DNA from: Gloeophyllum trabeum ATCC 11539
Taxonomy: Eukaryota; Basidiomycota; Agaricomycetes; Gloeophyllales; Gloeophyllaceae
Length of the DNA: 64,000 nt
Reading direction: 5' to 3'
Assembly (NCBI RefSeq): GCF_000344685.1
Contig: NW_006920415.1
Location: forward strand, 330,834 to 394,833
This document shows positions 40,292-63,535 of the stretch, piece after piece (the stretch's first letter is position 1; each line of letters opens with the position of its first letter). Both the position numbers and the translations under genes were made by a program. The notes under the pieces are model-generated. The model was not told the DNA's origin. It worked only from the letters and a program-made list of their open reading frames with translations, and did no database searches.

Positions 40292-41514
40292 TCACTGAGA
40301 TTGCCCTCGCCCCTGGCTAGGACTTATGAGCCTCAATCCCGCTATGCGCTCCAATCTGCTTAAAATGTAGCGAAATGCGTCCCGGTAGCGTGCTATGGCT
40401 TCCTCAGCCAGACCAAAGAATGCGAAGAATAGGAAGCTACAAATGATAATGTTCCATCGACTGAGCTCGATAGCCAGGACAGCCCGGCTGTCCGACCTCC
40501 ACAAGAGCGATGGGATTTGGCCTAAACGCGAAAAGTTGAAGTGGGTGTCACTCCAGCTCACCCACGGGTTGATTTCATCGGCATTGATGCTGAGGAAGTA
40601 TGCGGAGACCGGTAGGCCGACGATTGCTTCCAGACTTGCTAGAGCAAGAAGTCGGCTGAGTCGGTGTCTAGAGAGGACCGTGTACTGTCCAAGAGTTTTC
40701 GAGCGGCTCTTCAGAAGGGCTCGAACTGTGAGCACTACGACGGCTAAAGGTTAGCCATCGAATATGCACGTATGTCTGAATTGGGGACATACCGCTGTAC
40801 ACTGATGTCAAGGTAGAGATGACCAGTGGCCAGCAATAGACAAGCGCGAAAGTAGGAGGGGTGTTGTATATTGCTGGCCAACAGCCTATCTCCTCGAGGA
40901 TGTCGAATCGATGTCCTTGAACAATGTAGCCTACTACTCCTTAGAATTCACTGGCCCAGCGACATAGTTGGAGACTTACTCAGCACAATTTCCAGGATTG
41001 GGAGGCCCAAGCCTATTGCGAGGTCGATGAGAAGACGACGCTTTTTCTGTAAAAAACTGAGCCATCACGCGAGACAGGTAATCGTAAGAGTTACCGTGTC
41101 CTTGGAGATCGAGAGCGGCCGGGTGATAATTTGGTTGAGGGTTCTGTTGATACAGAAGGAAACGAGAGGGATTGCGACATTGGTCCCGATGTATATACGA
41201 GTCGCTATTACAATACAGAGTCAAAGAAAAACTGGGCTATGGATATAGCGCGTACAGATATCACACCATACCGGTGACCAGTTGATGGCGTTATTCCGCC
41301 ATAATACGGAGTTGATGAACACATTAAGCGATTGCACGGCCGTCCAGGCCATGTAGAGAAAGACTCCGGTATTCCATGCTGCCATAGAACATGTGAGACA
41401 ACATAGGCTGGACACCTGGGGAGACTCACCTTCGGCCTGCCAGGAGAATGGAATGATAGCGAGAACGAAACTGAAGAACGAAAGAATAGAAAAGACAATG
41501 TTCGAAGCCGACAT
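40292..41514 (-). CDS. STE3-type pheromone receptor R1
   Basis: Minus-strand GPCR of the STE3 family. Exon 1 begins MSASNIVFSILSFFSFVLAI; then AWNTGVFLYMAWTAVQSLNV with VWCDI; RIYIGTNVAIPLVSFCINRT; KKRRLLIDLAIGLGLPILEI; the STE3 hallmark YIVQGHRFDILEEIGCWPAI; then ICL3 and TM6-7 (RHRLSRLLALASLEAIVGLP, NPWVSWSDTHFNFSRLGQIP, FFAFFGLAEEAIARYRDAFR). Six GT-AG introns by my reading. The cytoplasmic tail is short, ending at 40292. It binds a farnesylated peptide pheromone of a partner and couples to a G protein. Subgroup I with R2-R4 by eye. Confidence 0.92.
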
Positions 41515-43147
41515 AACTGCCCCTTCGGAAGGAATGTTCAGAGCGGCTCGGACATAGCTGAATGGTGGGGTGCTTAATTGAAGAAAGCGGTGTTGGGTAG
41601 TCGATCTCAGCCTTGCCCTATTTATGAGCGTTGCGCCGTGGTGGTCGCGACAAGGATGACGAGAGCGGGTGCCACGAACACCGATATCTCCACGCTCTGA
41701 GTTTATCATGATAAGACCAGGAACTGTGCATCTCTTCGGCTTGGAAAGGATATTCTCGTCTGCCTGGGCTCCACCTGTGCCGAAGTTGGACTGGAGCGCC
41801 CCCGTGAAAGTAAAAGCTACGTTGATTGAACTACTCTGACACGTACATAATGCGCACTCACATTATAATGGGGGCCTCATGTACTAACTGCCGGTGTACT
41901 CTTTCCATATGGCATTCAAGTACGGCGGCTCAGTGGATGAGCTGCAGCGAGGTAACCTGTACCAAATGAAAGGTCGTTGACGCTATGAACTTCGTAACCA
42001 CTGGATTTGGCTCAAGCTCACCTAGTATTTGGTCATGTAGGTCCACAGTTACGAGATTCCGATGTCGCCATCTTCACCATACATACATCAAGAACATGAT
42101 ATCTTACTTTCAGGGAGACAGCAGATGGTAAAGTCTTCGGTCAATTACACAGTCCACTTGGTCAATCATAAATCTTATATAGGTGCACGATTTCATCCAG
42201 ACGGGTTGTCAGCATCTCATGCTGCGTTCACCGAGAGCGGTCAGTCTGAGTGTGGACAGGATCTGTTTTTGGCAGCTATCATAGACTCGGAGCTACCGGA
42301 CGCGACAGTCACAGTGCACGTGATTGAATAGTCACAGGAGTGTTGTACGGGCCTCAGATTAGAAATATTGTCCCGCGATGCCACGCACTTGCATCCAGGG
42401 AGTTGGTACGAATTTCTTTCCAATTATGAGTATGGGAAGGACTTGTATTCACGGAAGCATGGATACCTCCATCTTCACTGTACTGATGCTACGCTTGAAG
42501 GACCCACAGAACCAGTTCTTTAATGTTGGGAACAACAACGTGGCGCCCCATCTTTACCCACACCCTCGTCAACCAATCTGCAAGTACTGTATGAGCTGCC
42601 TTCCAACAGCGGCGGGTCTATGAATATTCACGACTCGATTCCTATATGTTTCAGACTGTCAAATTCCATGCTACCTCTGTGGAAGATTTGATCCTTCGAA
42701 CTATCGTCAGTACTTTGTGCAAGAGAAAGGTATGTTGCTGAGCGCGGACTCCTGAATTAACCACTGATAGAACCCCCTGCTACACGTGTCGTGATCGAGC
42801 TTTTAGGTTTATTCTTGGGTATGGCCTCTTCGAAGCTCGGAACAACCTCACCTGCGAAGGCCGCCAGCGCGCCCAAACTACGCCAACGCAATAATAAGAT
42901 TATCCTGCACAGATTATATTGTGCATGATATAGAAATTGGAAGGAACGTGAGTGCTGATGTATGCTGTCCATGTGAAAAGGGCGTGTGATTGGGCAATAT
43001 TCGATATCGGCCCTCCGTCGAGAACAGGTCGTATTCACGGTCGTGCTGTACGCGTATATGCATTGCTTGGTTTCGGAAAGCGACCATCAGCTCTCCGAAT
43101 ACTATCTCCCAAGTAAGTGATGTACCTTCGTGTCCGGCGCATATGGA
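41515..43147. other. Spacer between R1 and pheromone gene Ph2
   Basis: Shared upstream region of R1; several open frames but none with receptor or CaaX features. One short ORF at 42455 starts MDTSIF but does not end in CaaX. Confidence 0.45.
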
Positions 43148-43303
43148 TTATGCGATCAAGCACCAGCAATGCTGATCCGCGCCGTTATCCCTCTCCGAGT
43201 CGGAGGGACTTGATACGAAAGGGAGGACATTCTGCGCGCTCGTTTCGGAGGCTGAGTTAGTCCCGTCCAGCAGGACATCATCGACCATGAAGATGGCGTC
43301 CAT
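43148..43303 (-). CDS. Pheromone precursor Ph2 (CaaX = CLIA)
   Basis: 51 codons without intron. Begins MDAIFMVDDVLLDG, has an acidic Ser-rich pro-region, an SER processing site followed by the predicted mature core DNGADQHCWC, and ends in the CaaX box CLIA. A longer upstream Met exists in frame, but MD-I-F is the normal precursor start and a TATAAATA box lies about 100 bp upstream of it. Its QHxWC ending is shared with Ph3. It sits between receptors R1 and R2. Confidence 0.9.
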   Translation of the reverse strand: MDAIFMVDDVLLDGTNSASETSAQNVLPFVSSPSDSERDNGADQHCWCLIA

Positions 43304-43401
43304 AGCAATGGGCGGAGAGTGATTTGGTGGCACCGGGCCTGAACTTGATATTATGGGAATTGTAGGTTTGGATTATAGTCATCACTACGGTGAGGATACC
43401 T

Positions 43402-43412
43402 CTATTTATACC
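43402..43412 (-). promoter_or_regulatory. TATA box of Ph2
   Basis: Minus-strand GGTATAAATAGAGG, an excellent TATA box, about 100 bp upstream of the Ph2 start. Confidence 0.6.
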
Positions 43413-44334
43413 AGGGAGTAATCCTTATCCTCAAGATTACTGGTTGAAGACCACTCTCAGGTACGTCCTTGTACTGCCTCCTACCAAAAGCGGCATTCCT
43501 TGTTTTCTGTTAGCCCCGTTCGGACCGGTTTACCCCAATGTCCACAGGGACCCACTGATACGTATGAGCACCCAACATGCGTCAGACGTACATTTGACGA
43601 GCTCTCTCGGGCATCTCTGCATTGTCTGTGTGACACAACGTGTTCTGGGGCTGCCGAGGGGCTACCGCAATTGCTCCCATAGATCTTTGCAGGGTTCTGA
43701 CTCTTACGCGCGTCGTGATTCTTTCCGCTTGTCTATTCTCTGGGCTCGTATGGTGCCGGGGACTGACACGCCCAACAACCACCATACTTACCTGGCCACA
43801 TGCCCTGCGCACTCAACTAATGCCGCCCGCTGGTACACAGAGGCCATCTCTGCGCAAGGCAACTTATCATGCCTAACATGAGCTGGTCGATGGAACGCCA
43901 CAAGGGGATCATCTGGTTATGATGACCAAATGTTTGCTCCCAGCTCGAGTGCGACCTCCCCTAAGGCGGCTCGGAGCCTACCGATTCGCTACGCGATACT
44001 TGACTCCGAAGTCCCTCATCCTTTCTCGCTATGTATTATCATCTCTTGGGTGTCTCGCTTGCCTTCATGCTCCATGATGCTACCCCGGGAAGGCCGTCGG
44101 GTATCTCGCACATTCCTGGGCTCGGCTACTGGCTAACCTCATAATGCCACTGGCCTGGTCTCTGACATGTAGCGGACGTCCCCTCAGAGTGTTCTTGTTC
44201 TCTGAAAGGAGTCTCTTGTCTCCGTCACGTCAAACTGGTGTATCTCGCCCATCTCCAAAAATCGGTCCACTGGTTTTATACTGTTCAGAAAGATGCCCCC
44301 CAGGACCTCTGAATCTCAATGAAGCTCTCCACAT
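43413..44334. other. Shared promoter region of Ph2 (-) and R2 (+)
   Basis: Divergent upstream region. Open frames present (43390-43881, 44144-44461) lack family features. Confidence 0.4.
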
Positions 44335-45480
44335 ATGTCGGATAGGACGTATCCGCTCTTCCCTGTCGTGGCTGCCCTTGGGTTCACCCTTGTGCTTATT
44401 CCCCTGCCTTGGCATCTCCGCTCGTGGAACTCCGGGATATCTTACTACATCGCCTGGGTAGCCTTGGGCTGCCTCGTTCAGTTCATTGACGCCATCGTAT
44501 GGCACGATAATACGTTGAATCTCGCTCCAGTGTGGTGCGATATCTGTTAGTACCTTCTGAAGCCTTCGAATATACGCCTGACTCTGAGAACTGAGAACTA
44601 GCGACTAGGATACTTGTTGCTGCGTCCTTCGGCATACCCGCGGCATCACTCTGCATTCAGAGACGACTCTATCGAATTGCGTATATGAAGTTCTCCGCAG
44701 ATCAGGCCGCGGTAAGGCATCTGCTTTTAGCCTTCGCCTGGAAGCACTAATCGATCTTACCAGCCGCGCCGGTCCGTGGTCATAGACAGCATCATTTGTG
44801 TGCTAATGCCTACGATCTACTTGGGTTTCTGTACGTTTCCTCTTACAATTTCTCAGTGGACATAATGATACTTAGGGAATCCGTTAGACTACGTCGTAGA
44901 AGGACATCGCTTCGACATCTTCGAAGATATCGGTTGCTTACCCGTCTTCTACAACACGATACCAACCATTTTCTTGATATACATATGGCCCCTCGTCCTG
45001 GGTCTCATATCAGCAGTCTACTGCAGTACGCCCGTGATCTATACGCGTCAACCCGGTTTCCTGATGTTCTCAACAGCGCTCTCCATGATCGCCGTCATCC
45101 GACGGCTAAATGAGCTTGACAAGCTCTTTGCCTCCACCCCGAATATGAATACCAGTCGTTATCTTCGCTAAATGGGGGTAGCCTGCATGGGATGGGTACT
45201 GACCGTTCCCATCGCGGCGTATCTGATTTATCTCAACGCGTACGCTTTGAAGCGTTGGGTCAGTTGGTCGGATACCCACTACGACTTCTCTCGCGTGGGT
45301 CAAGTACCTGCAGTAGTATGGCACCAGGATATACGCACTGCCGTGAGCGTTGAGCTCGATCGCTGGTTATTTCCCGCTTGTGCTTTCATTTTCTTTACGT
45401 TATTTGGACTCTCTGAGGAGGCTCGCCGACACTATCATGCGGGGTTCACTAGTATCTTGCCATGCATGCGGTCTCGGTGA
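44335..45480 (+). pseudogene. STE3-type pheromone receptor R2 with premature stop
   Basis: A plus-strand STE3 gene: MSDRTYPLFPVVAALGFTLV, LPWHLRSWNSGISYYIAWVA, VWCDI; TRILVAASFGIPAASLCIQR; RSVVIDSIICVLMPTIYLGF; the hallmark YYVVEGHRFDIFEDIGCLPV; then the third loop NMNTSRYLR followed by TAA (45169-45171) where the relatives have Leu. The frame then continues normally (MGVACMGWVLTVPIAAYLIY, WVSWSDTHYDFSRVGQVPAV, LFGLSEEARRHYHAGF) to a stop at 45478. A single TTA-to-TAA change would explain this. The product would lack TM6, TM7 and the tail. Otherwise intact, so recent loss or a base-call error. Confidence 0.85.
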
Positions 45481-45674
45481 CGTTCACTACTGTATACAAT
45501 TGGATTATGCGACATGCTACAAGCAGATTTACAGAGAAGTTTCAAGTTTGACAACTGGGAAGGAGGGGGGCAGGAAATACATGGAGCCCGAATCCTAGTA
45601 GGCAAGAAAGGTGTATGCTACATGATTCACATGTCCGATGATATAAGAAAGAAATCCTACCAAGGATCCACCGC

Positions 45675-47334
45675 CTAGACGATATCAATCGTGCTTATGT
45701 GAGGTGACGGTCTCACGGATAACGGCGCATCGAGATCGTGCCGAGGCACAGACGAAACGTGAATGAAGTGGTCGTCGGGCCACTGCAGCTCCAATGCTTC
45801 CGACGGATGGGGTTCAGCTGACGACGGCATCACAGCCCGTTGCCCTGAGAATGGGCGATCCGTCTTGCTTTCGTGCCCGTCCATGAAGGAGTCAATATCG
45901 CCCAGTATTATCACAGAGTCGAGTCTATCTGAGAACGATAGGTCTGAATCTCTCTGGGGTCTACGGTGCGTGTTGAGATGGAGGGGGAGAGTGATGTTCA
46001 GCGGTCCGCGCACGTTAACAGGTCCTGGCTTTGTTTTCCAACTGACAGAACTGAGGGTATTGAGCGGTAGATAAAACAGCATGAATAGGAGGTAACGACA
46101 TACACAGACGAGCCTGGTGCTTTTGACTCCGATACCGACTCGTACCCAAGGCATTTCGCAACGAAGACGTACAAGCGACGATAATGCTTTAACGCTTCAT
46201 CGGCAAATCCAAAAAACGCAAAGAAGATGAAAGCGCAGATGACCGTGAACCAGCGGCTAGACTCGAGAGACGCTTGCAGCACAGGATTCGATCTCCAGAT
46301 TACAGCCGGGACCTGGTCGACCTTCGAAAAGTTGAAATGCGTGTCTTCCCAAGAGATCCAGGGTTGTACTGGGAATGAGGTGACGTTGAGGTAGATCGTA
46401 TAGATGGAGAGGGGGATGCCGCAGAGCACCTCGACGCCGGCGAGAGCCATGAGACGGAAGTAGCGGCTGGAAGTGAGATTCGTGTGAGGGGACAGGAATT
46501 TGCTGAACTCGGTCTTTCGTTTCACAAATTGGCGGATCGAGAGGGCTGCGTAGTATGTTAGAGCATTGTACAAACACTTGCAGGTTTAAACATACCTGAG
46601 TAAACTGCGGATACCATGGCTATGGCTAGCGGCCATACTTTGGAGAGAGGATAGGCAGGCCAGGTATTGTAGATAAATGGTTCGCAGCCTATATCTTCGA
46701 AGATATCAAACCGATGCCCTTGGACAATGTAGGCTGCCCTAGAGTCAGATAGAGCATGGGATTGAAATGAAGCCACGCACAAAGAATCATCTGCAAGAAC
46801 GGTATACCCAAGCCAATGGCAAGGTCAATCATTACACCTCGGCGTTTCTACTCACGAATGATTACGCTCCAATTCATACAAGCCCCGAACACCACATACC
46901 TCCTGCCGAGTAACTACAACAGCTTCAACTTTGGAAATATGATACAGTCGACGATTTATGCATAGGGACGCGGCAAGGATGGCGACGCTGGAGCCAATAT
47001 ATATTCTACTAGCTGAGTAGGATGGGTACTTAGATTGTTGAAATCCGCATAATGCATAGTAGACTCACAGATGTCGCACCATACTGGGGCCCAATTAATG
47101 GCATTATTGTTCCACACGACAGAGTTGATAAAAAGGTTCAAGCATTGGATGGCTGTCCAGCCCATGTAAAGGCACGTGCCCGTGTTCCATGCTGAAGACG
47201 AGGTGAGCGAACGTTCAGCAGATACATCACCTGGCTGGCGCACCTTCTAAATGCCAGTAAAACGGTATTAAGACGAGGACGAAGCCTATGAAGGAGAACG
47301 CAGAAAATACGGAATTGGGGACGTCGGTAAGCAT
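45675..47334 (-). CDS. STE3-type pheromone receptor R3
   Basis: Minus-strand receptor, all hallmarks present. MLTDVPNSVFSAFSFIGFVL; AWNTGTCLYMGWTAIQCLNL with VWCDI; RIYIGSSVAILAASLCINRR; KRRGVMIDLAIGLGIPFLQM; YIVQGHRFDIFEDIGCEPFI; RQFVKRKTEFSKFLSPHTNL with SSRYFRLMALAGVEVLCGIP; QPWISWEDTHFNFSKVDQVP. A last intron with donor GTATGT (phase 2) leads to a tail exon, VWKTKPGPVNVRGPLNITLP onward, ending STIDIV at 45675. The start Met at 47334 directly precedes TM1. Subgroup I. It is convergent with R2. Confidence 0.92.
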
Positions 47335-48097
47335 AGAAGGTAAAGAAAGTACAGGTGGTCAACACACTACAAGATAGCAAAGAATGATAGCGAAAGCACT
47401 GGATGAGAAGACGCAGAGAGGGCGAGAGTCGTAGCGCCGTCCTCGACCCTTAAGGATAGTCGAGGCCGTATACTCGCATACCCATTCATCCTCTTCAGGG
47501 TCTTACCTTAGAGCCAGGTATGGAAGCCTACAGCGTCCTCATGAGAAAAGAGGGCTGGTCGATTTTTCACCATTGCATCTGGATAAATCCCGGCAGTTTA
47601 CTTTGTAGCTCAATTAGGATCTCCGTATGTACTTGCCGGCATGTCGACCGCCACCGGACGACCTTGTGCCAAATGAGGCCGGTGGGCAGCATTTGACTGT
47701 GCATCCTATCGCCAGCATACTCCCCCCGGTGCACACAAACGTAACGCTGACGAGACACAGCTTTTGTCCTTGACAGGATGAACGGTGTGTAGCAGGATGT
47801 AGATAGAACCTAACTGACAGTAGCGATAGGGTCCAGCTTGATCGGCATATGCCGGCGGCACGTTCCGTCTACCCAAGACATGGTAAGCCCCTGGTCCCTG
47901 CGGTTCCGCCGGATTCATAACAGATTCACTCTGAATGTAACATTGGATATATTGACTTCTTTGAAGACAATCCATCGGTCAGTAACACTCGGAACAGATG
48001 AAAGACAACATTTTCAACGCAGGTACACCAGCTACCAGTGGAGGTGTCGCATCAAGCACTGAAGAATCAAGATTGTGATTGAACTCATATCGCTGAA
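47335..48097. other. Intergenic region upstream of R3
   Basis: Divergent promoter region of R3 (-) and the RG-rich gene (+). No CaaX ORF found. Confidence 0.45.
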
Positions 48098-48986
48098 ATG
48101 ACTTCGCCAGCAGATCACCCTGCCAGAGGACGCGGTAGGGGTAGAGGGAAGTCTCGCGGAGGTTTAGGAAAGTATCTTCGCGCTAGAGGCCGAGGTCGCG
48201 GACGGAGTCGCCCAGCCGAGTTCGGGAAACGTCTGGTCCTCGAAGGTGAGGAGGAGGAAGAATTGGATCCGGACTCCGAAGAGGCGAAGGAGTTCGCTCG
48301 CAAGTACTCGCGGCGAGAACTTGGCTCGAACGCCGATCGATATGTCGAGCCCGAACCCGAGCTAAACTCGGACGGTAAGTTGTATCCAACAGAGACGCTC
48401 GATCTGCCTATCGCATCGCTAACGAAAAATCAGGTGAGGTTGAGGAAGAGCCTGAAGTAGATCTGTCCGCGTTTCTTGCCCGCCAGCGTCTCTCGCCAGA
48501 ACCAGATCCCTCGTCTTCCGCGCCCCCTCCACCCGACGAGGAAGTGGACGAGAGCCTTGATTATCTAGATACTGGTGCATCTTCCGCTCGAAGCAAACCG
48601 AAGAAGGGCAAAGCGCAGACGATCGAATGGGACGAGAAACTAGAAGAGCTAAGCCGTGAAAAAGCTATCGCTGACGCCAGTAGAGGCAAGCACTTCCGCA
48701 ATGCTGTTCGAGAATCCTGGATAATTGCTAAGTCCTACTCAGAATTGAAAGAACGCTTCAAGGCACAATCCAGCCAACAACGGTTTCGGCCTGTGGTACC
48801 CGGCGGCGAGAAAGACAAGAAAAAAGGCACGTATGAAAATATTCGATTTATTCATTTACATTTACTCATGTCACGCCGCTAGGAAAGGAATATGTCGAAG
48901 CACCGCCTCTTCCAATCGAGAATACAAATCGTGCGAAGGACCAGAAGGAAGAGATGCAAGACTTTCTGGACGATTTGCTTGGATAG
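48098..48986 (+). CDS. RG-rich, acidic hypothetical protein inside the receptor cluster
   Basis: Starts MTSPADHPARGRGRGRGKSR, an Arg-Gly repeat region that may bind RNA, then an acidic block (EGEEEEELDPDSEEAKEF). Exon 2 (after an intron at about 48375-48432) continues GEVEEEPEVDLSAFLARQRL and a conserved-looking core IEWDEKLEELSREKAIADAS with RGKHFRNAVRESWIIAKSY. The last exon reads KEYVEAPPLPIENTNRAKDQ and ends EMQDFLDDLLG. Keeping this acidic C-terminus requires a GC-AG intron (donor GCACGT after AAAAAAG); a GT donor three bases later gives a less plausible tail. I do not recognise the family. It is not a mating gene by sequence. Confidence 0.68.
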
Positions 48987-49821: not shown

Positions 49822-51630
49822 TTAGACGATATGGATGACATCCGAGTCCTGTTGACGAGGTGCTGTCATCATCTCATCCGATGGGCTCGACGGATGCGGC
49901 ATCGCTACGGGGCAGACGGACGGAGGGGAGAACGGTCGATGAAACGCGGGGACAGCAGGTCGGTCGTACTCTGGCGAGGTCGGTCGAGATGCGACGTACG
50001 CCTCGGATATCGATATGTGGTGGTTAGGATCCGTCTCGAACGGCAGATGATTAATAGTGGGACATTCGCTGGTGGCCGGAGATGGCGGCAACGACGAGGA
50101 TGAGTGGAAGGTTGTAGCGTCCTTGATCTTGGCGGGTTCAGGTAATGTCGGCGTAGACAGCCCGTGCGACTTCTCGACATTGTAGCCGGGCGAGTCGACA
50201 TCGGTGGTCGCGAATGATGAGGTGAAAGACATCCCTCCTTTCTTCTTGAAGTCTGGACTTGATGGAGAGTACATCGGCGGAGGCCCGCTGGACATGATGG
50301 GGGGTTTGGGACGGACGAAACTAACAATTGGAATTCGTTCAGCTGAGAGAGGACATGAAGTCTGAAAGAAGACACTAACCTAGTCGGGAGAGTAGCTTGC
50401 AGCTTCTTTGCAGGAGGCTTGAGTCCGAATCGCTTCGCAATCCACCAGAACAACATACTATAATGTCTCCTGGCTTCCTCGGCGAAACCGAACAAAGCAA
50501 AGAAAATGATGCAGCAAACAGGGAAAATCCAGCGGGATAATTGGACAGATGTATAGTAAGACGGGTCGTTCATCCATATTAGCGCTGGAACTTGACCGAC
50601 ACGCGAGAAGTTATAATGCGTGTCCGACCACGAAACCCAAGGTGCGATGGGGACGCCCTTGTTGTCAATGTAGATGCTGTAGATCCCTATCGGAATGGTG
50701 CAACAGATTTCGCAGCATGCGAGCAGCATCAATCGGAGGTATCGACTTGCGTTCATTGCTTGGGCTGAAGTGGCGAACTGGCTGAACTGGATGCGACGGA
50801 TGAAGAAGTTACGCAAGGATAGTGCTATACCAAAGTCAGCCACCTCATCTATCTATTACAGCCGGCACATTACTCACCTGCATACACGAAAGAGATGCAG
50901 CCTAGTAGTGGTGGCCACATGAACAAGAGGAAGTACGCGGGAAGCGTGTTATATGTTGCCGGCTGGCACCCAATATCTTGCAATATGTCAAAACGGTGAC
51001 CTAGGCCATTGTGTCAATTCATGGGACGAGAGACGGTTCTGTGAGCTATTCACCTTGCACGATATAATCTGGAAAGAAGCCCTCAATAAGCCAGAACGGT
51101 ACAACTCACGAAGAACAACTCACGAAGAATCATGATCAGCAGCGGAATACCGAGGCCAATCGCAAGATCGGCTATTACAGCACGCTTTTTCTGTAAGTCA
51201 CGGGCGGTTAGGGCTGCTGAATGGGTTCCAAGAGCGGGACGTACATCTTGCTTGGTCATGTTAACGGACCGTATGGACGATAGGAGATACAGACGCCTGA
51301 CAATACACAGAGATGCCGCCGGAATTCCGACTCCTGCACCGATGAAGAATTTGGTTGCTTTAACGAATGTCAGGAACTCGATACGCATATAACTACTGAA
51401 CGCCGACACTTACATATATCGCACCACACAGGTGCTATGTTGTCTATCCTTCCATCCCAGACTACTGCATTGACGAACATATTCAAGCTACCTAAACCAG
51501 CCCAGAGCATGTAGAGGCAGGTGCCCGCGTTCCATGCTTGGAGATGCCAGGACAAAGGCGTAAGGGCAAGGATGAACCCAAGGAAAGAGAAAACAGGGAA
51601 GAGGGGATATGTGGGATCTGTGAGAACCAT
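49822..51630 (-). CDS. STE3-type pheromone receptor R4
   Basis: Minus-strand receptor: MVLTDPTYPLFPVFSFLGFI, LSWHLQAWNAGTCLYMLWAG (no intron here, as in R2), VWCDI; the block KKRAVIADLAIGLGIPLLIM; YIVQGHRFDILQDIGCQPAT, with an extra intron inside VQG; FATSAQAMNASRYLRLMLLA; APWVSWSDTHYNFSRVGQVP; FFALFGFAEEARRHYSMLFW. A phase-2 intron (GTTAGT...TTAG) leads to a long Ser/Pro-rich tail ending QQDSDVIHIV. Start at 51630: the Met just before TM1 is preferred to one 81 bases upstream. Subgroup I; tail much longer than in R1. A GTGAC-type palindrome lies about 140 bp upstream. Confidence 0.93.
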
Positions 51631-52350: not shown

Positions 52351-52483
52351 TTGCCCCCAATGTCTCCCCATCCCACCTCTTCACTCAGAACTTCGCCCAC
52401 ATATCCGCGACCTCCCTTATTGGATTACTCGCTCTTCGCCGCTGTCAGCGTGCGCACTCCAAGCAGCTTAACAAATAACCGCT

Positions 52484-52612
52484 ATGGACGAATACGAGTT
52501 CATCAGCAATATTATTGCCCTCGACGTTGAGGACGACCCCGCATGCGATGCACCGCTCGACATGGAGCACCCAGGCTGTGCGACCCAGCACGCCTGGTGC
52601 GTCATCGCATGA
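52484..52612 (+). CDS. Pheromone precursor Ph3 (CaaX = CVIA)
   Basis: 42 codons, no intron: start MDEYEFISNIIALD, an acidic pro-region (VEDDPACDAPLD), MEH as the likely processing site, a predicted mature core PGCATQHAWC and the classic CaaX box CVIA. EH as well as ER is used before mature pheromones in mushrooms. The QHxWC ending is shared with Ph2. It lies 854 bp from the start of R4 in divergent orientation, sharing an upstream region that contains two GTGAC palindromes. Confidence 0.93.
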   Translation: MDEYEFISNIIALDVEDDPACDAPLDMEHPGCATQHAWCVIA

Positions 52613-55207: not shown

Positions 55208-55219
55208 GTGACAGGTCAC
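55208..55219. promoter_or_regulatory. GTGAC/GTCAC palindrome upstream of Ph4
   Basis: GTGACAGGTCAC, inverted half-sites two bases apart, about 410 bp upstream of the Ph4 start. Confidence 0.35.
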
Positions 55220-55627
55220 AATTGTTCTTTCTTTTGTGGCGTTCAATGTCTGGCCCCTGTGGACCGACTCGTCTTGCATAATGCATTTGTTCTCGGACCA
55301 TGACGGTCCGCCGATTGTGGAAAAACGCAGCGAGCCACAATGTGGATGATTTTGTGGCTCGACTCGCCGTTGTCCTATGATTTTGTGGCCCTATGGCGCT
55401 CGACCAGCGATGCGACGGCTCAACTCTCCATTTATTGTTTCCTCTGACCTGTAAAAGGCGCGTCGCGCTGTACCCTGTATCCCCAACATGCTAGTACACT
55501 CGAACCACCGCTATTTTTCTCTGCACCACCCTCCTCGTCCGCGAAGGTTAGACTCTCCGACGCGATACAGCGCACCCCATTGCCCGCACACAACTGCCCA
55601 GCTACATCATCACCACAAACATCATAC

Positions 55628-55771
55628 ATGGATTCATTCCTGCCAATCGAGTTAGCTGGTGCTTTCGCACCGGATAATTCTGCGACGGCCGATAACCCCG
55701 CCCTCGACCCCTCTGTCCCCCGCGACGAAGACTCGTGGTGGGGCTACGGCAGTTACTGCGTCGTAGCTTGA
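55628..55771 (+). CDS. Pheromone precursor Ph4 (CaaX = CVVA)
   Basis: 47 codons without intron: start MDSFLPIELAGAFAP, a Pro/Asp/Ala-rich pro-region, a possible processing site VPR, a predicted mature core DEDSWWGYGSYC and the CaaX box CVVA. An in-frame Met 48 bases upstream exists but MDSF is the usual start. The SYC ending resembles Ph1 (AFSYC) rather than Ph2/Ph3 or Ph5/Ph6, so its receptor partner subgroup is unclear. It lies between R4 and R5, 1.1 kb upstream of R5. Confidence 0.93.
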   Translation: MDSFLPIELAGAFAPDNSATADNPALDPSVPRDEDSWWGYGSYCVVA

Positions 55772-56848
55772 CGAGATATTGTACGTTCGCCGTTTTCATC
55801 GCGCCGATGGCTCGTTCTGACGCGGCCTTAGCTTTCAGCAGATGGTCAGGAATCACTGCAAACGGTCAAGGGCTTCTGCGTTGCCCGTGATGGACAGTTA
55901 GACTCTATAGGTTGATGAGGAAGAGAGCGCGTGGCTATAAGTTATCTGTATCGTTATTCGCTTCCTTGCCGTTTGTATCAGATATTGTTCGGTTTTCAGA
56001 CGCCTGCCAGTAGTACAACTTGTATCGCTATCGCGGAACCTATACCATTGAAGCTTGATATCCACCTGCGGATCGCTCCTACCTTGCAGTCAATATTTCG
56101 GCCGATGTGCGCAGTTTGCGCGATCCAATGCATCTGTGCACCAAACGGTCCAAGCCTTGCTCTGGTGAGCGGTGGCGACGGCCTCCGCATAGGCATCTCT
56201 GTGAGCCCTGCGCGGTCCAAGCAACTGCGACTTGTTGATAACTCGCACTACCTGACGAGAGAAGACCTGCATTTTTCCAGCTGAAATGGATCCTGGGCAG
56301 TTTTGTCCGTCTGCCATCGCGAGGGGGGGGGGAGCCAAGATGGGGTCCTTCAATCAGCGTCTCTGGTAGTTCGGGAAGTTGGTGCGTTGAGTACTCTACA
56401 TTATGTCTACATAGACTGCCGACAGATGTCGGGGGCCACGGCGCGTCATGATCAGGTGACGGCGAAACACGGTGCACGAATGTCAGTCGAAGTCACTCAG
56501 CAACGACAAGAGTCCGACTGGGATACCCACTGTCACGTTTGTAGTCGACAATAGACATGGACTATTCAACCGGAGACTGGATCTTGTAGTGGACGCTAGA
56601 CGCATCCAAATTCACACGACTTCTCGGCACGGCATTCCCACGAGCCGTTTGTATTCTGTATCAGGCTCATTGTGTGGGTATAACAGTGCGTACAACAACT
56701 CGTGCTTGTGTTCACATTCGGGACAGGGCTTGAATCCATTGTCCCTTCGACATTATGCAGGCCGTTTATACAGGCGACGCGAAGATGCCTCGAGCCTCAC
56801 TCCGTCCCCGGGAGTCTGCTCACCTTTTCTTTTTCTCTGACCCTCTCC
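55772..56848. other. Spacer between Ph4 and R5
   Basis: Promoter region of R5. Contains a run of about ten G near 56324. A minus-strand ORF starting MDSSPV (near 56740) ends in a bare GCV and is not a full CaaX. No supported gene. Confidence 0.45.
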
Positions 56849-58325
56849 ATGTTTGCTGGTCTCCCTGTGGGTGCCTTCCTCGCTGCGCTGCTCGTTCTTG
56901 TCCCCCTGCCCTGGCATTGGCAAGCTCGTAACGTCGCCACGCTCTCCATTATTGCATGGCTTTTCGTCGTCAACATAATCTACGGTATTAACGCTATAAT
57001 ATGGGGCAGTGATGCCATAATCAGGTTCGCACCGTGGTGCGACATCGGTGCGTCCTCACATTGCTCGCAAATACGGTGTACTCACCACCACCATTTCTCC
57101 AGTTACTAAAATACAGATTGGATCCAACGTTGCGTTGCCTGCTGCCTGTTTCTGTCTGGATTGGAACTTGGCCAGCGTCGCCTCTATCAACCGGGTCCGA
57201 ATTACTACTCAGGATAGACGCAGGCGCCGTATCTTCGAACTCGTGATTTGCTGGGGAGTACCTGCTGTGTATATGACATTACGTAGGTGTCACTCGTGTT
57301 GCAACTGCGGAAGCGTACTCAAGTCTTGTCTGTAGATTATATCGTGCAGGGTCACAGGTTCGACATCGTCCAGGGATTCGGCTGTCGACCGACTACATAC
57401 GTCTCCTGGCCGGGCGTACTAATTATCTGGGTCATCCCCCTTCTCTTTACTCTAGCAGCGTGCCGATTCGCAGGTGAGCTGTCATTCACTCCAGCCAGGC
57501 CCGCCACCTGACCCTGACGTCTCCTTCAGGTCTCGCCTTATATTACTTCATCCTCCAACGAGCCATGTTCTCCAAGCACCTACAGAGCACCAACTCTGGA
57601 CTTACCCCAAGTCGGTACCTGCGCCTCCTGGCGCTGTCCCTCGCCGAAATGTTCTGGGGCCTCCTTGTCACCATCCTCAACATGCGCTTTTCGCTGCAGG
57701 CGGGGCTGCGTCCGTGGATCTCCTGGGAAAACGTGCATTCCGACTTCTCGCGCATCAACCAGTACCCGCTGCTTGCGATACCGAGCACGGCGCTGTCGTG
57801 GACGCTGTTCCTCTGGTGGACCGTACCGGTGTCGGCGATGCTGTTCTTTCTCTTTTTCGCCTTTGGGGAAGATGCGATGAGGGAGTATCGCGCTGCCGTC
57901 GGGTGGGTCCGCCGGACTGTCCTTCGCCAGAGCGTACAGAGCGAGAATAAGTATCCATTCTCGAGCTCATCTCACTCTACGTATGTGCACCCCCCCTCTC
58001 TCGCCCTTGTCTCATTCACATTTCTCCTTCCAGTCTCCCAACACGCCCCAAGAGCCCGCTGGTCATCTCTATCGGCCACGAAAAGCCCGTCATCGAGACA
58101 GCGTTCCCTACGCCTACTTCGAGCACCGCCTCGGACTTTCAAGAGACGAAAGCTGAACTACCCATCCCGCTGTCTCCCGTGTTCCTTGCCCAGTCGATGC
58201 GCTGCCCGTCCAGCATGACCGGCAGCCGCGCTACGATCGCTAGCTACTATTATAGTCCCCCTTCTCCCGGCAGCTCAGACGAGCGTCGTCCGCAGTACGT
58301 CTCTCATTCTCACCAGATGGTGTAG
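56849..58325 (+). CDS. STE3-type pheromone receptor R5
   Basis: Plus-strand receptor. Exon 1 begins MFAGLPVGAFLAALLVLVPL, then PWHWQARNVATLSIIAWLFV, IYGINAIIW and PWCDI. Then TKIQIGSNVALPAACFCLDW, RRRRIFELVICWGVPAVYMT, the hallmark YIVQGHRFDIVQGFGCRPTT, GLALYYFILQRAMFSKHLQS, SRYLRLLALSLAEMFWGLLV, WISWENVHSDFSRINQYPLL and FFAFGEDAMREYRAAVGWVR. A last intron (donor GTATGT) leads to a Ser/Pro-rich tail that ends YVSHSHQMV at 58323. Start chosen as the Met at TM1. With R6 it forms subgroup II: both have NVATLSII and WENVH/WADVH in place of WSDTH. Confidence 0.93.
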
Positions 58326-59315
58326 CTTGACTTCGTTGGCTCTCGTGTGTATCCTGATCTTCTCGTTGTCCAAGTCACAGTGTCCTGTATTCCCGTCGAA
58401 ATTGGCATTCGCAGTCGTACTCAATTCACATTCAACTGACACTGATGCTCATACTCATGCTCATACTCACAGTCATAGCCACATTTGTTACAGGCCTTAT
58501 TCCACAGCTTCTGTCGGATGTACACGTACTATTTATCGTTACGAAATACAATTTTTTTGTGATCTACGTGCCTTGTCGCCAATCTGTGTGTTGCGATATA
58601 CTTATACCAACCTCGCATTTTCCGATTGATAAGATTGGAGGTTGCGGATGCAAATGCTCAGCGAAACTTGCTGCTTCTAATGCATCCCTTCTAAGTACTG
58701 AGCTTCACGCTGCGGTGTTGCGTTGAGTCGTCTGGGTGTACCGGAGCGGTTGGGATATTGTCCTCGAAAACGCATTGTCCCGTACACCTCTTGGCTTAGG
58801 GAGGATATTCATGTCATCGCCCCCTTACAGTGAACAACCACAGATAATTAGACGTGATGACAGTCCATGATTTTTGACGAGGGCACATATTTTGTGAAGC
58901 GTTGATGCGCAAGAGTTGGAAAACAAAATGCGCGCAGATGTAATTTCGTCGGGATACAGATACATCAGGAACACTACTCATGTACGAGTCATTTATCTAG
59001 AGGCTACACTTTATACAGGGAATGGAACAGACACCGTTACAGTAAGGCATTTCAAGCAAAACTGAAGAATGAATGAAAGAGGGGTACGATCAATCAGCCC
59101 AATGGAAACAAAACTGCTAAATGAGTTGGGCGTGGATCAACGCGCCGGAACCGACGAGTATAGATGCACACAGTCGCATGTCTTGTGATGCGGCACTATC
59201 TATGAAGAAGTCTATTAGATGTCCTCGAAGTATGATCAGGGGATGGCGTATTACTCACGGATATATATGTTGAATAAATTAGTATTGTTGTGGGTCTCCG
59301 CTTGAAGCGAGAGAT
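58326..59315. other. Spacer between R5 and Ph6
   Basis: Convergent 3' region of R5 and Ph6, with imperfect CTCATA repeats near 58445. No supported gene. Confidence 0.45.
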
Positions 59316-59462
59316 TCAACTGATTGTGCACCACCAGCCCCCTCCGCTGCTCCACGCCTCAGAATCGACTGGAACGGAGGAAGTGGTGATATCGGTGCAG
59401 TCCGCCGAGGTCGTGTCCAACGAGAGTGACAGCTCGAGGATGAGTGACTCGAAGGAATCCAT
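59316..59462 (-). CDS. Pheromone precursor Ph6 (CaaX = CTIS)
   Basis: 48 codons, no intron. Starts MDSFESLILELSLSLD, has a Thr/Asp/Ser-rich pro-region, a possible processing site at SE before the predicted core AWSSGGGWWC and ends in the CaaX box CTIS. A final Ser is compatible with farnesylation. GGWWC is shared with Ph5. A TATAAA-like site lies about 185 bp upstream near 59648. It lies antisense to a longer frame on the plus strand (59290-59514) that has no family features, which hides it from a simple ORF search. Confidence 0.9.
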   Translation of the reverse strand: MDSFESLILELSLSLDTTSADCTDITTSSVPVDSEAWSSGGGWWCTIS

Positions 59463-60949
59463 TACAAGGATGCGTGGTTATGGGTGCTCGTTGTGGCGCT
59501 GGCTGTCGCGGTGATTATGCCTACCGCTGATGCGGGTGAAAGTGCGACGAAGGACGAAGAGCGAAGAGCGAAGACAGCTGAGCGAAGTGGATCGCAGAGT
59601 ATAGACAACGGGTTGAATATGAGGGGGGCAGACATTGCTGTATGACCTTTATACGTGTATACCAGGGACACCATGCGGCAATATACATAGTCAAGCCACG
59701 GTACCGACAGTGTCCCCATTGCAGACTCACGACGAACGCTATGATGCGACAGAAAAGCTGTTCAATGGGACTCACCGACGAGACGACTACGTCGACATTG
59801 TCATCTAAAATGGGAAAGACGACCTCCTGTGAGAGACGCAGCACGAGGTCATTTCACCGCTTCAGTCTTTGCGAACACGACCCTGCCTGTCAGGCCGAAC
59901 AAAGAGCAGGAGTACTCTTCGGACGAAACAATGTAGGCCATATAAGGTAGTCTAGCCTTTTGTCAGACCGTGGGACCAGGCCCTAGTACCCAGCTTGTCT
60001 AGCATTGCGGTCACGGTCACGCTGGTTTCTTGCAGAGCTCTCGCGTCCTAGTGATGTTGTAGCTCTCTGACAGCACTCTACTGGGTCATTGTCTTCCAGA
60101 ATCGCAGTTGTTGTCCGTCTTGATTTGCTAACTTTCTTAGGAGACACCGGCGGGGAGGAAAACACCGGCATGCTTTGCAAAGCTACTCTACCTCATGCCA
60201 GCGCACATGTACATTGTCTTCACTATCCCGCCCCTACGCGCACTTCCCCGGATTGCTTTCCTATCGTACTTCTTGTTGAGTGTATGCCTATATTCGACTC
60301 CCCTCCTGGTTCGCGCTCTATTGGGAACGGGGATAAAGTCCCCGACCTCCCCCGTATACGCATCATATTCGCTCTAGACCCCCTTTTGCTTGAGTTGTAA
60401 TGGACGCTCGAGAGAACTCAATAGAAACCAGTAGGTCAACCTTCCATAGTGAATCTTTTGCGCGATAGTATCCTCTCCGCGATGCAACGCTGATTGCACA
60501 GCTATGCCCTACGCCGCTGCTAGCTGGCTAACCTGCGGCGCTGCTCAAGCGCTGAAGTCGCGAGTCGCCAAAATTGAAATACACAGTACGGAGTGGTCGT
60601 GATGTTCTTTACATTCGTAAGACTGCTATACAGAAGTAAGCCGTTGCACTATTCTATCATACAGTCTCGATCTTGACTGCTGTACAAGTCAATACACACA
60701 GAGAATATATAGATAAGGAATGTCATAGTCGCACAAATATCGACGTCGCAATAATGTGTTGGGAAGCCTGAGGCGGCCTAGAGGCTCAGTTCGGAATGAA
60801 GTCAGCAGTCGACCGTAAGGACATTGGATGATGCCCTACATGCGATTAGGCACTCAGTGAAGTAGACTTCTCCGACTTGACAAGGCGCTTACCAATAATT
60901 AGAGGATAAATTATAGCGACAGAGACCGAGCATGCTTGGGGCTATACGG
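59463..60949. other. Spacer between Ph6 and Ph5
   Basis: 1.5 kb without a supported gene. The open frames at 59983-60180 (-) and 60195-60377 (+) have no recognisable domain. Two GGTCAC direct repeats at about 60009-60020. Confidence 0.4.
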
Positions 60950-61105
60950 TTACATGACCGCACACCACCAGCCACCAGGGGCCCAGGAGGACCTTGATTC
61001 CGCGTCGACTGGAATATCGCCTTTCTGAATGGAATGCTCCATAAAGCCGCTTCCTTCGTCCGTCGAAGTCGGAAACCCGGCTGTGATGGTGGCGAAGTCA
61101 TCCAT
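60950..61105 (-). CDS. Pheromone precursor Ph5 (CaaX = CAVM)
   Basis: 51 codons without intron. Starts MDDFATITAGFPTSTDEG, has an acidic pro-region, ESR as the likely processing site, a predicted mature core SSWAPGGWWC and a CaaX box CAVM. A terminal Met is accepted by farnesyltransferases in general, but Ala is commoner in mushroom pheromones, so the exact box is unusual. The core resembles Ph6. A TATAAA on the minus strand near 61233-61238 lies about 130 bp upstream. It lies between R5 and R6, both subgroup II. Confidence 0.9.
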   Translation of the reverse strand: MDDFATITAGFPTSTDEGSGFMEHSIQKGDIPVDAESRSSWAPGGWWCAVM

Positions 61106-61232
61106 GATAGGGCGTATGGATCGAAAAGAAGGGGATTTAATGGGTTTGATAGGCTTGTTCGAGCGTCCTTGGTGTTGGCGCAGTGTCTTCGTAGGTTGGT
61201 ATGGGGGTGCGGAAAACTGACCGTCGGCCAGC

Positions 61233-61238
61233 TTTATA
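61233..61238 (-). promoter_or_regulatory. TATA box of Ph5
   Basis: Minus-strand CTATAAAGC about 130 bp upstream of the Ph5 start codon. Confidence 0.45.
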
Positions 61239-61896
61239 GGCCTCGCCTGAGCGCTGTGGCCAGCGTGTCTTATTCATCAGAGGACCTGCGGTGGGATGCG
61301 CTCTGGACAATCACCACTAGCCGGTATGTGGATCTGTGGCGAATGAAACACGTGTTAATGATGAGCACCCTCATTTGACAGTCCAGCCCGCAGTGTAGTC
61401 TGTGGCTTCATTCCGAATCGGGCAGACTCAGCTGTCGTGGCGTGCTGCTGGATGGACTGCGCTGCGGCCTGCAACGGGAATGTCTGACCTCGTTTCTCTA
61501 TAGAAGACGTGGTTTTGTTCTGAACGTTCTGCCCTCCGGTTCTTTTGATTTATCCGACAGTACCCTGATCGATGGGATATCCCATAAGCTTCGGGTCATC
61601 CTACTAGCGGGTAAAAGACCAGTCACGTACGGCGTACGCATCTCAGGATGCCTGACTCAGTTCACCAGATAGTTTTGCTCATCCAGTTGCTTCCATAATT
61701 TCATTTCACGCTCTACCCAATTGAAGGACCATCGGCCATTCAAAGGAGATCGCACAGAAGTGTCTGATGGTAGTGTAGAACGAAGGTAGTATACATGTTT
61801 AGGGATACAGTGTTGAGTCGTAGAGCGTCAGGCAAATGAATAAATAAATAGAGGTATCCCACTCGTCATCGCTTATGCATCGTCTATCGGGACCCC
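61239..61896. other. Spacer between Ph5 and R6
   Basis: Upstream flank of Ph5 and 3' flank of R6. No supported gene. Confidence 0.4.
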
Positions 61897-63425
61897 TCAA
61901 GGACACGGCTTTTCATCAAACCTGTCCGACAAGTCATGTAGTGCCTGAGGTTCGGCTTGCGGCCTCGGCGCATACTTAGTGAAGTGAGAATGCAGCACGG
62001 ACTGTGGTGATGAGCTCAGGATCGGCGAAGACTGGGCTATAGAAGCGTCTTCGAGGGTATCTTCCGCGCCGGGATGGGTTGCAGACGAATATAAGCTTGC
62101 AGTCGTGGAACTAGGGTAACAGTGAACCTTGTATGTTGATGAGTCTTGAGAGGCGTACACCATAGACAGAGATGCAGACGCTGATAACGAGACGGGGGCA
62201 GGTTTGGGCATCGACACAGTACTTGCGCTGGTCATCGGTTGCCTGGGGTCTGGATGTCAGCCGTAGCCAAATAGGGGCTGTTCATGGGACCTACCATGCT
62301 ACAGGCAACGAACTCGTATGCCTCGACTTGGCACTGGGTCTTCTGGGTTTTAGTCGAAGGATCTTGGATGCTATCCATGAGAAACACGCTTTGTACTCGT
62401 TGACGGCATCTTCGCCGAACGCGAAGAACGCGACGAATGTGAGCGTGGCGACGGGGACCATCCACCACAGCACGGTGTACGTCCGTAGGAACATTTGAGG
62501 AAGCAGAATGGTAGGGTACTGAGCAATCTGTGAGAAATGCCAGTGGACGTCGGCCCAGCCGGTCCAAGACTGGAGGTTTGCGCTATTGAACCACACCGTG
62601 TAGCCGGTGAAGGCAATGCCGATGACCATCTCGACGACGGCCATCATGATGAGGCGTAGGTAGCGCGCAGTGGTGAGACCGGCTTGGCTGTTCAGATGCT
62701 TGGCGAACGAGGCACGCCGTTGGATGAAGTGCATGAGGGCACAACCTTTGAATACCGTGTCAAAGCAAGGACGACGGATCCTGCAGACACGACTTACCTG
62801 CAAATCCCAGCGCTAAGGTCGCCAAAAATAAGGGTACTACCCACATGAGGATGAGCGCTGGCACTGATGCATATATTGCTGGACGACATCCGAAGTCTTC
62901 AATTATATCGAATCTATGTCCTTGCACGATGTAGTCTAGAGCGACGTAAGAGAGACCGCAAACGCAACGATGGATAACGACTGACGAAGTGCCATAAAGA
63001 CCGCAGGTAGACCGAAGCACATCAAAGCCTCAATGATTTGACGTCGCCGCTTTTCTGGGAGGGTCGTCCTTGCAGCTCTTAGAGACGAAACTTGCTCCAA
63101 ATGAATGCAGATGCATAGACATGCTGCCGGGAGTGCAAAATTACCACCGACAATTATTTTGGTCGCTGTCAAGAAAATTGTATCAGTCTCTGCGTTACAG
63201 CAAGCAATAAGCAATGTACACACTTATGTCGCACCAGACTGGAATAACAATCTCGGCATTATTGGCCCAAATAACAGCATCAACGCCGTATATTACATTC
63301 AGCACAAACAACCAAACTATTATTGATAGTGTTGCGACATTTGCGGCTCGCCAATGCCAGGGCAATGGCAGAAGGATGAGTGTGGCGCAAAGGAAAGCGA
63401 TAGTAGGGAACTCGGGATGATGCAT
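61897..63425 (-). CDS. STE3-type pheromone receptor R6
   Basis: Minus-strand receptor. Start MHHPEFPTIAFLCATLILLP at 63425 with PWHWRAANVATLSIIVWLFV, IYGVDAVIW and VWCDI. Then TKIIVGGNFALPAACLCICI, EKRRRQIIEALMCFGLPAVF, YIVQGHRFDIIEDFGCRPAI, RASFAKHLNSQAGLTTARYL, RLIMMAVVEMVIGIAFTGYT, WTGWADVHWHFSQIAQYPTI and FFAFGEDAVNEYKACFSWIA. A phase-2 intron (GTAGGT...CCAG) leads to a Ser-rich tail ending RFDEKPCP. Subgroup II with R5. Two regulatory-looking sites lie upstream: ACAAAGGGA about 100 bp and a GTGAC palindrome about 185 bp from the start. Confidence 0.93.
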
Positions 63426-63526
63426 AGCGCAGACCGGGAGGCAAACGCTTCGCAGGGTAAGCACCATCTGCTTAAGTACCCCGTAGATTGGGAAGCAGGC
63501 ATTGATGTAGAGTCCATATCGAGGTC

Positions 63527-63535
63527 ACAAAGGGA
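63527..63535 (+). promoter_or_regulatory. Candidate pheromone response element upstream of R6
   Basis: ACAAAGGGA, an exact match to the pheromone response element bound by the HMG-box factor Prf1 of Ustilago maydis, 102 bp upstream of the R6 start. Confidence 0.5.

What the first reader, a model, noticed from the sequence alone, without database searches (positions are those of the whole stretch)
40292..63535. Large pheromone/receptor mating locus: six STE3 receptors and five pheromone genes in 23 kb
R1-R6 all carry the STE3 hallmarks (VWCDI-like end of TM2, GHRFDI loop, W-SW-DTH-like extracellular block), and five tiny intronless ORFs between them have the full precursor layout (MD start, acidic pro-region, ER/EH/SR-like site, CaaX). 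Most of the precursors are under 55 codons, so a usual gene finder would miss them.
Basis: partly seen in the sequence, partly recalled or inferred. Interest (0 to 1): 0.9.

Follow-up and report, generated by a model that had tools for sequence, protein, structure and literature searches.

The report
Mushroom pheromone-receptor (PR) mating region
This is the pheromone and pheromone-receptor region of a brown-rot mushroom fungus, real and larger than first described, but of a kind already known in many mushrooms.

Summary
Window 40292-63425 holds six STE3-type receptor genes (R1-R6) and five small CaaX pheromone-precursor ORFs; 40 Markov simulations of the 144 kb region gave none of this layout, against six observed. 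Corrections: R2 has an in-frame TAA (45169-45171), and the cluster continues outside the window with R7-R9: nine STE3 genes in about 62 kb of one contig, with no match elsewhere in the genome. The fungus is Gloeophyllum trabeum or very close (R6 324/324). A PAK-like kinase (236-2332) and a SNF2 gene bracket R1-R7, as at MATB in Trichaptum; ICMT genes are linked, as in Boletales; HD genes are on another contig. [quoted passage not shown] Best reading: an extended Agaricomycete PR (MAT-B) region that mixes candidate mating cassettes with conserved non-mating receptors. Mating function and allelic polymorphism are untested. New member of a known kind; low to moderate interest.

The parts
40292..41514 (-). 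R1, STE3-type receptor, 6 exons, 321 aa
   Evidence: Model; PF02076 304.9 bits; 295/295 aligned residues identical to the partial G. trabeum ATCC 11539 protein P0242
43148..43303 (-). Ph1, pheromone precursor, 51 aa, ends ...SERDNGADQHCWCLIA
44335..45480 (+). R2, STE3-type receptor interrupted by TAA at 45169-45171; the frame behind it stays open and STE3-like
45998..47334 (-). R3, STE3-type receptor, 6 exons, 359 aa (C-terminal tail uncertain); 74-78% to Heliocybe and Neolentinus proteins
   Evidence: 325/326 aligned residues identical to G. trabeum P0007, whose tail differs
49822..51630 (-). R4, STE3-type receptor, 7 exons, 492 aa
   Evidence: 316/323 to the partial G. trabeum protein P0241, the differences lying at one splice choice
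52484..52612 (+). Ph2, pheromone precursor, 42 aa, ends ...MEHPGCATQHAWCVIA
55628..55771 (+). Ph3, pheromone precursor, 47 aa, ends ...RDEDSWWGYGSYCVVA
56849..58218 (+). R5, STE3-type receptor, 4 exons, 401 aa (C-terminal tail uncertain)
59316..59462 (-). Ph4, pheromone precursor, 48 aa, ends ...DSEAWSSGGGWWCTIS
60950..61105 (-). Ph5, pheromone precursor, 51 aa, ends ...ESRSSWAPGGWWCAVM
62291..63425 (-). R6, STE3-type receptor, 4 exons, 324 aa
   Evidence: 324/324 to G. trabeum P0121, 76% to Neolentinus P0122
8747..8869 (+). D1, further pheromone precursor, 40 aa, ends ...DSERCGGGAFSYCIIS; member of the dispersed, non-mating-type-like set
18074..18625 (-). ICMT-family (isoprenylcysteine carboxyl methyltransferase) ORF
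   Evidence: PF04140 49.4 bits
236..2332 (+). PAK/CLA4-like kinase: CRIB (PBD) exons in 236-459, kinase-domain ORFs 1476-2332
   Evidence: that both belong to one gene is inferred from order and strand

Best explanation
This is the PR (MAT-B) region of Gloeophyllum trabeum or a very close relative, in extended form. Small CaaX precursors would be farnesylated, trimmed, carboxymethylated (ICMT-family genes are linked) and exported, and would activate STE3-type receptors of a partner nucleus or hypha that carries a different version, feeding the G-protein/PAK/MAP-kinase pathway that controls nuclear migration and clamp fusion. Cassettes suggested by adjacency: Ph1 with R1 and/or R2, Ph2 with R4, Ph3/Ph4/Ph5 with R5 and R6. 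R3, R7, R8 and R9 have no pheromone ORF directly beside them; R3 and R8 are conserved and are probably non-mating-type receptors. Shown: gene content, predicted gene structure, homology, flanking genes, HD genes on another contig. Inferred: processing, receptor-ligand pairing, mating role.
For: Nine STE3 genes at C6:371-433 kb account for all 33 matches of the genome search (such counts are lower bounds). Five precursors interleaved with R1-R6, with none of the layout in Markov controls. R1-R4, R7 and R8 have exon runs of 110/113, 67 and 138 nt, the 138 split 15+123 in R4 and R7; the same lengths are reported for S. commune receptor genes (PMC8161036, passage). A PAK-like kinase at window 236-2332 and SNF2 ORFs at C6 about 423.3-425.2 kb bracket R1-R7, as PAK and SNF2 bound MATB in Trichaptum (PMC8970355, passages). 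ICMT-family hits at window 18074-18625 and C6:314-318 kb, as at Boletales B loci (PMC5473757 section 15). HD pair on contig C1. In a quick tree R5 and R6 lie on the side of S. commune BBR1 and C. cinerea Q875K7, R1-R4, R7 and R8 on the other side of a branch with SH-aLRT support 100.
Against: No comparison of mating types: R1, R3, R4, R6 and R9 are identical or nearly so to ATCC 11539 proteins over the aligned parts, which fits one strain or mating type but equally genes that are not polymorphic. R2 has a stop codon. Two of five precursors (Ph4, Ph5) lack a listed cleavage dipeptide in the last 16 residues. Pfam's pheromone model PF08015 hit none of the C6 precursors at E <= 1. No paper in the listings reports the mating system of G. 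trabeum by title or abstract (5 of 5, 20 of 152, 13 of 13 and 15 of 80 papers listed).
Confidence: 0.78

Rival explanations
1. The same PR-orthologous region, but in a bipolar species: the HD locus alone decides mating type and the pheromone/receptor genes act after fusion or in self-signalling, without a mating-type role.
For: Near identity of five receptors to the ATCC 11539 proteins. The bipolar Phanerochaete chrysosporium keeps three clustered receptor genes at a B-orthologous locus (PMC4101180, passage), and in bipolar Agaricus bisporus the PR genes have lost the mating role (PMC8305134, passages).
Against: Seven receptors and five diverse precursors in 28 kb; in Boletales, tetrapolar species have more receptor and precursor genes than bipolar ones (PMC5473757, passage). 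R1, R2, R4, R5 and R7 have long end branches, 0.5-1.6, as expected of diversified mating receptors.
Confidence: 0.3
2. Part of the receptor count is an assembly effect: alleles of a dikaryon placed side by side as paralogues.
For: The origin and ploidy of the sequenced culture are unknown; R5 and R6 are 49% identical and have pheromones between them, like two versions of one cassette.
Against: No second copy of any receptor in the genome search. No direct repeat of 40 nt or more in 40-64 kb; only two inverted pairs of 72 and 40 nt at 75%. Five of the receptors (R1, R3, R4, R6, R9) have their match on a contig of 2,004,249 bases in the ATCC 11539 record.
Confidence: 0.07
3. R2 is a working gene and the TAA is a sequencing error or a strain-specific allele.
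For: The frame behind the stop stays open. Against six homologues R2 has 52.2-66.5% identity before the stop and 36.3-51.0% behind it; the intact R4 shows a similar drop, 49.3-65.2% to 31.9-42.3%. The R4 drop is partly due to its longer, variable tail.
Against: No read data; no G. trabeum protein like R2 among the listed hits.
Confidence: 0.35

Closest known systems
MATB (PR) region of Trichaptum, PAK to SNF2 (PMC8970355, passages)
   Same: STE3 genes with interleaved pheromone genes, PAK on one side and SNF2 on the other, conserved non-mating receptors mixed with mating ones
   Different: There four receptors and two precursors in 30.3 kb; here seven receptors and five precursors plus D1 between PAK and SNF2 over about 94 kb, two more receptors behind SNF2, and ICMT-family genes in the region
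B locus of Rhizopogon vinicolor and other Boletales (PMC5473757, section 15 and passages)
   Same: Six receptors and eight precursors in R. vinicolor, linked duplicated ICMT genes, receptors of both ancient clades
   Different: More receptors here; four ICMT-family hits at 22-57 kb from R1; not Boletales
Extended B region of Schizophyllum commune (PMC8161036, passages)
   Same: Pheromone-recognising and receptor-like (brl) genes in one region; same exon lengths 110/113-67-138
   Different: There six receptor genes, one of them unlinked; here all nine found lie on one contig
[quoted passage not shown] cinerea, L. bicolor, A. bisporus and Pycnoporus (PMC8305134 section 15; PMC4101180 passages)
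   Same: Several precursors with similar G-rich mature tails (GGGSGNGAYC, GGGSGNNAYC), scattered in A. bisporus
   Different: Tail here G-x-G-[AG]-[FNW]-SYC; at least seven genes on five contigs; one of them (D1) lies 31 kb from R1. Homology to those peptides rests on the resemblance of short tails, not on a search

Membership tests
STE3 pheromone receptor (PF02076) | Full-length match above the curated cut-off | tested here: met
   R1-R6; R7 311.1, R8 (as P0001, 454/455 identical) 371.8, R9 157 bits over positions 1-286; R2 only as two halves
STE3 pheromone receptor (PF02076) | Seven transmembrane helices | tested here: inconclusive
   Crude hydropathy count: 7 in R1, R3, R4, R6, R8, R9; 8 in R5 and in R2 read through the stop; 6 in R7; 6 in R2 up to its stop. 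No structure prediction was run
STE3 pheromone receptor (PF02076) | Intact reading frame in every receptor gene of the cluster | tested here: not met
   Eight of nine models open; R2 has TAA at 45169-45171. R2 alone is therefore not claimed as a working receptor
Basidiomycete a-factor-like pheromone precursor | Short ORF, MD start, acidic, C-terminal CaaX | tested here: met
   Ph1-Ph5 and D1-D7, 33-51 aa, net acidic, MD start
Basidiomycete a-factor-like pheromone precursor | Charged dipeptide cleavage site ER/DR/EH/NH/EE/DE before the mature part | tested here: inconclusive
   In the last 16 residues of Ph1 (ER), Ph2 (EH), Ph3 (DE) and of 7 of 7 dispersed precursors; not of Ph4 or Ph5 (tails printed, judged by eye)
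Basidiomycete a-factor-like pheromone precursor | Match to Pfam Pheromone (PF08015) | tested here: not met
   No C6 precursor at E <= 1; one match on C14 at 17.3 bits, below the cut-off of 22
Agaricomycete PR (MAT-B) locus | Receptor and pheromone genes interleaved | tested here: met
Agaricomycete PR (MAT-B) locus | Conserved flanking genes PAK/CLA4 and SNF2 | tested here: met
   RSM19, DML1 and RIC1 were not searched for as such and did not show among the ORFs scanned
Agaricomycete PR (MAT-B) locus | HD locus unlinked (tetrapolar layout) | tested here: inconclusive
   HD pair on contig C1, PR on C6; contigs are not chromosomes. A third Homeobox_KN match lies on C8 without Mating_N
Agaricomycete PR (MAT-B) locus | High allelic divergence between mating types | not testable with these tools
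   No second strain of known mating type; five receptors match one other G. trabeum record
Agaricomycete PR (MAT-B) locus | Pheromone of one haplotype activates a receptor of another and controls nuclear migration | not testable with these tools
   Needs crosses or expression
[quoted passage not shown]
   Seven genes on C3, C6, C9, C11 and C14 (three); the ten residues ending in Cys share 6.5 of 10 on average, cluster precursors 3 of 10, between the two sets 2.5 of 10

The most novel reading that the evidence does not exclude
The seven dispersed precursors with the shared G-x-G-[AG]-x-SYC tail are the ligands of the conserved receptors R3 and/or R8, so that this fungus runs a second, non-mating self-signalling circuit beside the mating one. 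Whether non-mating receptors interact with pheromones is called unknown in PMC8305134 (passage); here candidates for both sides of the pairing can be listed. No call tested the pairing.
Probability: 0.18. Interest if true: 0.55.

Novelty: new member of a known kind. Interest (0 to 1): 0.3.

Why it matters
It gives a gene-by-gene map of the pheromone/receptor region for a brown-rot fungus of the Gloeophyllum kind, including small precursors that gene finders easily miss. It also lists seven unlinked precursors with a common tail, candidates for the missing ligands of non-mating-type receptors. It does not change the general picture of how such loci are built.

Tried and rejected
The Pfam Pheromone model PF08015 missed all six C6 precursors and gave one sub-threshold hit on C14, which turned out to be a member of the dispersed set. 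The GC dip at 30-32 kb falls on a run of 755 N. My first R4 and R7 models lacked one in-frame intron each, and the first R4 model ran off its region; they were corrected, R4 after seeing an 18-residue gap against P0241. No Rfam match in the window. No PDB relative by sequence for R8 (as P0001) at E <= 0.001. Recent tandem duplication was rejected: R3/R8 share 66%, the other pairs about 51% or less, and there are no direct repeats of 40 nt or more. For neighbours, 54 different ORFs were scanned with Pfam (with ten each, with five, one of them a repeat); 18 gave a hit at E <= 0.01 and 36 none. Shorter exons were not scanned, so the gene map of the flanks is incomplete. The ICMT linkage was weighed by a rough Poisson estimate (13 clusters in 35.5 Mb, two near the locus, about 0.002), with an interval chosen after seeing the hits, so it is only indicative. 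A search for relatives of the dispersed precursors in other species failed at the length limit and was not made; of the cluster precursors only Ph5 was used as a query against the own genome, so unlinked relatives of Ph1-Ph4 were not sought by similarity.
Full report
Where it is. R6 is 324/324 identical to a protein of Gloeophyllum trabeum ATCC 11539, and R3 is identical in 325 of 326 aligned residues to another, whose tail differs. R1 matches in 295/295 and R9 in 294/294 aligned residues to partial proteins, and R4 in 316/323, the differences lying at one splice choice. All five are listed with a contig of 2,004,249 bases; C6 here has 1,998,718. So the fungus is G. trabeum or very close. R8 matches only an unnamed source (454/455). 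R2, R5 and R7 have no G. trabeum match among the listed hits; they were part of the A3 profile search, but only 120 of 235 hits are listed, only the 7999 candidates sharing most words were scored, and annotation of that record may be incomplete.

Receptors. Models from conserved exon frames and GT-AG introns: R1 40292-41514(-), R2 44335-45480(+), R3 45998-47334(-), R4 49822-51630(-), R5 56849-58218(+), R6 62291-63425(-); beyond the window, in window-based numbers, R7 66690-67972, R8 97512-99144, R9 101203-102274, all (-). The tails of R3 and R5 are uncertain. Pfam STE3 spans the model in R1 and R3-R8, positions 1-286 of 292 in R9, and two halves in R2. The 39 introns are 47-59 nt; GT-AG was required, so it is no evidence. 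R1-R4, R7 and R8 have consecutive exons of 110/113, 67 and 138 nt, the last split 15+123 in R4 and R7; the same lengths are reported in S. commune (PMC8161036, passage). In R5 and R6 the first two are fused (180 nt) and followed by 138; in R9 171 and 138.

R2. TAA at 45169-45171 stands where R3 and R4 have leucine (RYLR*MGV against RYLRLML in R4). The frame behind it is open and still STE3-like (77 bits). Against six homologues it has 52-67% identity before the stop and 36-51% behind it; the intact R4 goes from 49-65% to 32-42%. Recent loss, a strain allele and a sequencing error all remain possible.

Pheromones. Ph1-Ph5 (coordinates in parts) are 42-51 aa, start MD, are net acidic and end in CLIA, CVIA, CVVA, CTIS, CAVM. 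Ph1 and Ph2 share QH-x-WC, Ph4 and Ph5 share GGWWC. Spacing suggests cassettes: Ph1 between R1 and R2, Ph2 0.85 kb from the start of R4, Ph3 1.1 kb before R5, Ph4 and Ph5 between R5 and R6. R3, R7, R8 and R9 have no precursor directly beside them. Pfam's pheromone model hit none of these.

Dispersed precursors. The scan also found D1 at window 8747-8869, 31 kb from R1. Protein searches of the own genome from D1 and its hits gave six more: C14:240093-240194(+), C14:247011-247124(-), C14:300651-300764(+), C3:146331-146459(+), C9:234336-234461(-), C11:28397-28522(-); ORFs were read. Single E-values were mostly weak (1e-7 to 0.3 between different members), and membership rests as well on the layout of the ORFs: MD start, 33-42 aa, G-rich tail, SYC and aaX at the end. 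Over the ten residues ending in Cys they share 6.5 positions on average, the cluster precursors 3, and the two sets 2.5. All seven have ER or EE before the tail. A. bisporus, C. cinerea and L. [quoted passage not shown] PMC8305134 section 15), and Pycnoporus has four similar precursors of seven (PMC4101180, passages). I take the dispersed set as the form of that family in this fungus; this rests on resemblance of short tails. A search from Ph5 found only itself and, weakly, Ph4.

Neighbourhood. The CRIB domain search gave two genes in the genome, one at window 236-459, followed by kinase-domain ORFs at 1476-2332: a PAK/CLA4-like kinase. SNF2 ORFs lie at C6 about 423.3-425.2 kb, 3.2 kb from R8. 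In Trichaptum PAK and SNF2 bound MATB (PMC8970355, passages); linkage of CLA4 to the B locus of other mushrooms is noted in PMC3140503 (passage). ICMT-family hits: 20 rows, 19 places after joining two on C2, 13 clusters genome-wide; four places on C6 at 314-318 and 349 kb, the last at window 18074-18625. ICMT genes near B are reported for Boletales (PMC5473757 section 15). HD genes: Homeobox_KN plus Mating_N at C1:1454193-1454771(+) and Homeobox_KN at C1:1453301-1453381(-); a third Homeobox_KN match, on C8, has no Mating_N. A peptidase M3 (MIP-like) gene lies at C1:1500668-1502214, 46 kb away; a second M3 gene is on C8. PR and HD are thus on different contigs.

Tree. A quick tree of 71 rows, the nine receptors and 62 chosen by me from 322 hits, puts R5 and R6 on the side of S. 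commune BBR1/Balpha8 and C. cinerea Q875K7, and R1-R4, R7, R8 on the other side of a branch with support 100. R3 (end branch 0.24), R8 (0.11) and R6 (0.26) have close relatives in Neolentinus, Heliocybe or an unnamed source (74-78% identity). R1 (1.31), R2 (0.51, 61% to Heliocybe), R4 (0.58), R5 (1.0) and R7 (1.61, 54% to Neolentinus) have none as close among the hits listed. R9 has a branch of 4.2 and its place is unsure; the tree program warns of R7 and R9. In Trichaptum the conserved receptors of the region are the non-mating ones, and in Flammulina the polymorphic two are the mating ones (PMC8970355 and PMC3140503, passages). By that analogy R3 and R8 are likely non-mating; R6 is ambiguous because pheromones lie beside it.

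Judgement. The locus is a large but recognisable PR region: other counts are four receptors in Trichaptum MATB, six per genome in S. commune, six in R. vinicolor, seven per genome in Flammulina (papers above, passages). The listings of searches (53 rows seen of 250 papers counted, some repeated) show no paper whose title or abstract describes the mating loci of Gloeophyllum; this is not a full search of the literature. The region is of a known kind.

Noticed in passing
window 8747-8869 and C3, C9, C11, C14: Seven dispersed pheromone-precursor genes with a shared G-x-G-[AG]-x-SYC tail, none beside a receptor.
   Followed up: yes
window 236-2332: PAK/CLA4-like kinase at the left edge of the window; one of two CRIB-domain genes found in the genome.
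   Followed up: partly
window 18074-18625 and C6:314024-317889 (L016): Four ICMT-family hits linked to the PR region out of 19 places found in the genome.
   Followed up: partly
window 45169-45171: In-frame TAA in receptor R2 with a conserved frame behind it.
   Followed up: partly
C6:432036-433107 (L012): R9, an open but extremely diverged STE3 gene (branch 4.2); apart from its own G. trabeum match, the best hits listed reach 30-34% identity.
   Followed up: partly
window 30496-31250: Run of 755 N under the apparent GC dip. Gap or masked stretch unknown.
   Followed up: no
window 13851-14878: Glycosyltransferase family 20 (trehalose-phosphate-synthase type) ORFs.
   Followed up: no
window 48083-48879: R/G-rich then acidic ORFs between R3 and R4 without a Pfam match: a non-receptor gene inside the cluster, or not coding.
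   Followed up: partly
C1:1453301-1454771 and C1:1500668-1502214: HD gene pair 46 kb from a MIP-like peptidase, farther apart than in the 17.9-19.6 kb bfg-MIP1 region of Trichaptum (PMC8970355, passage).
   Followed up: no
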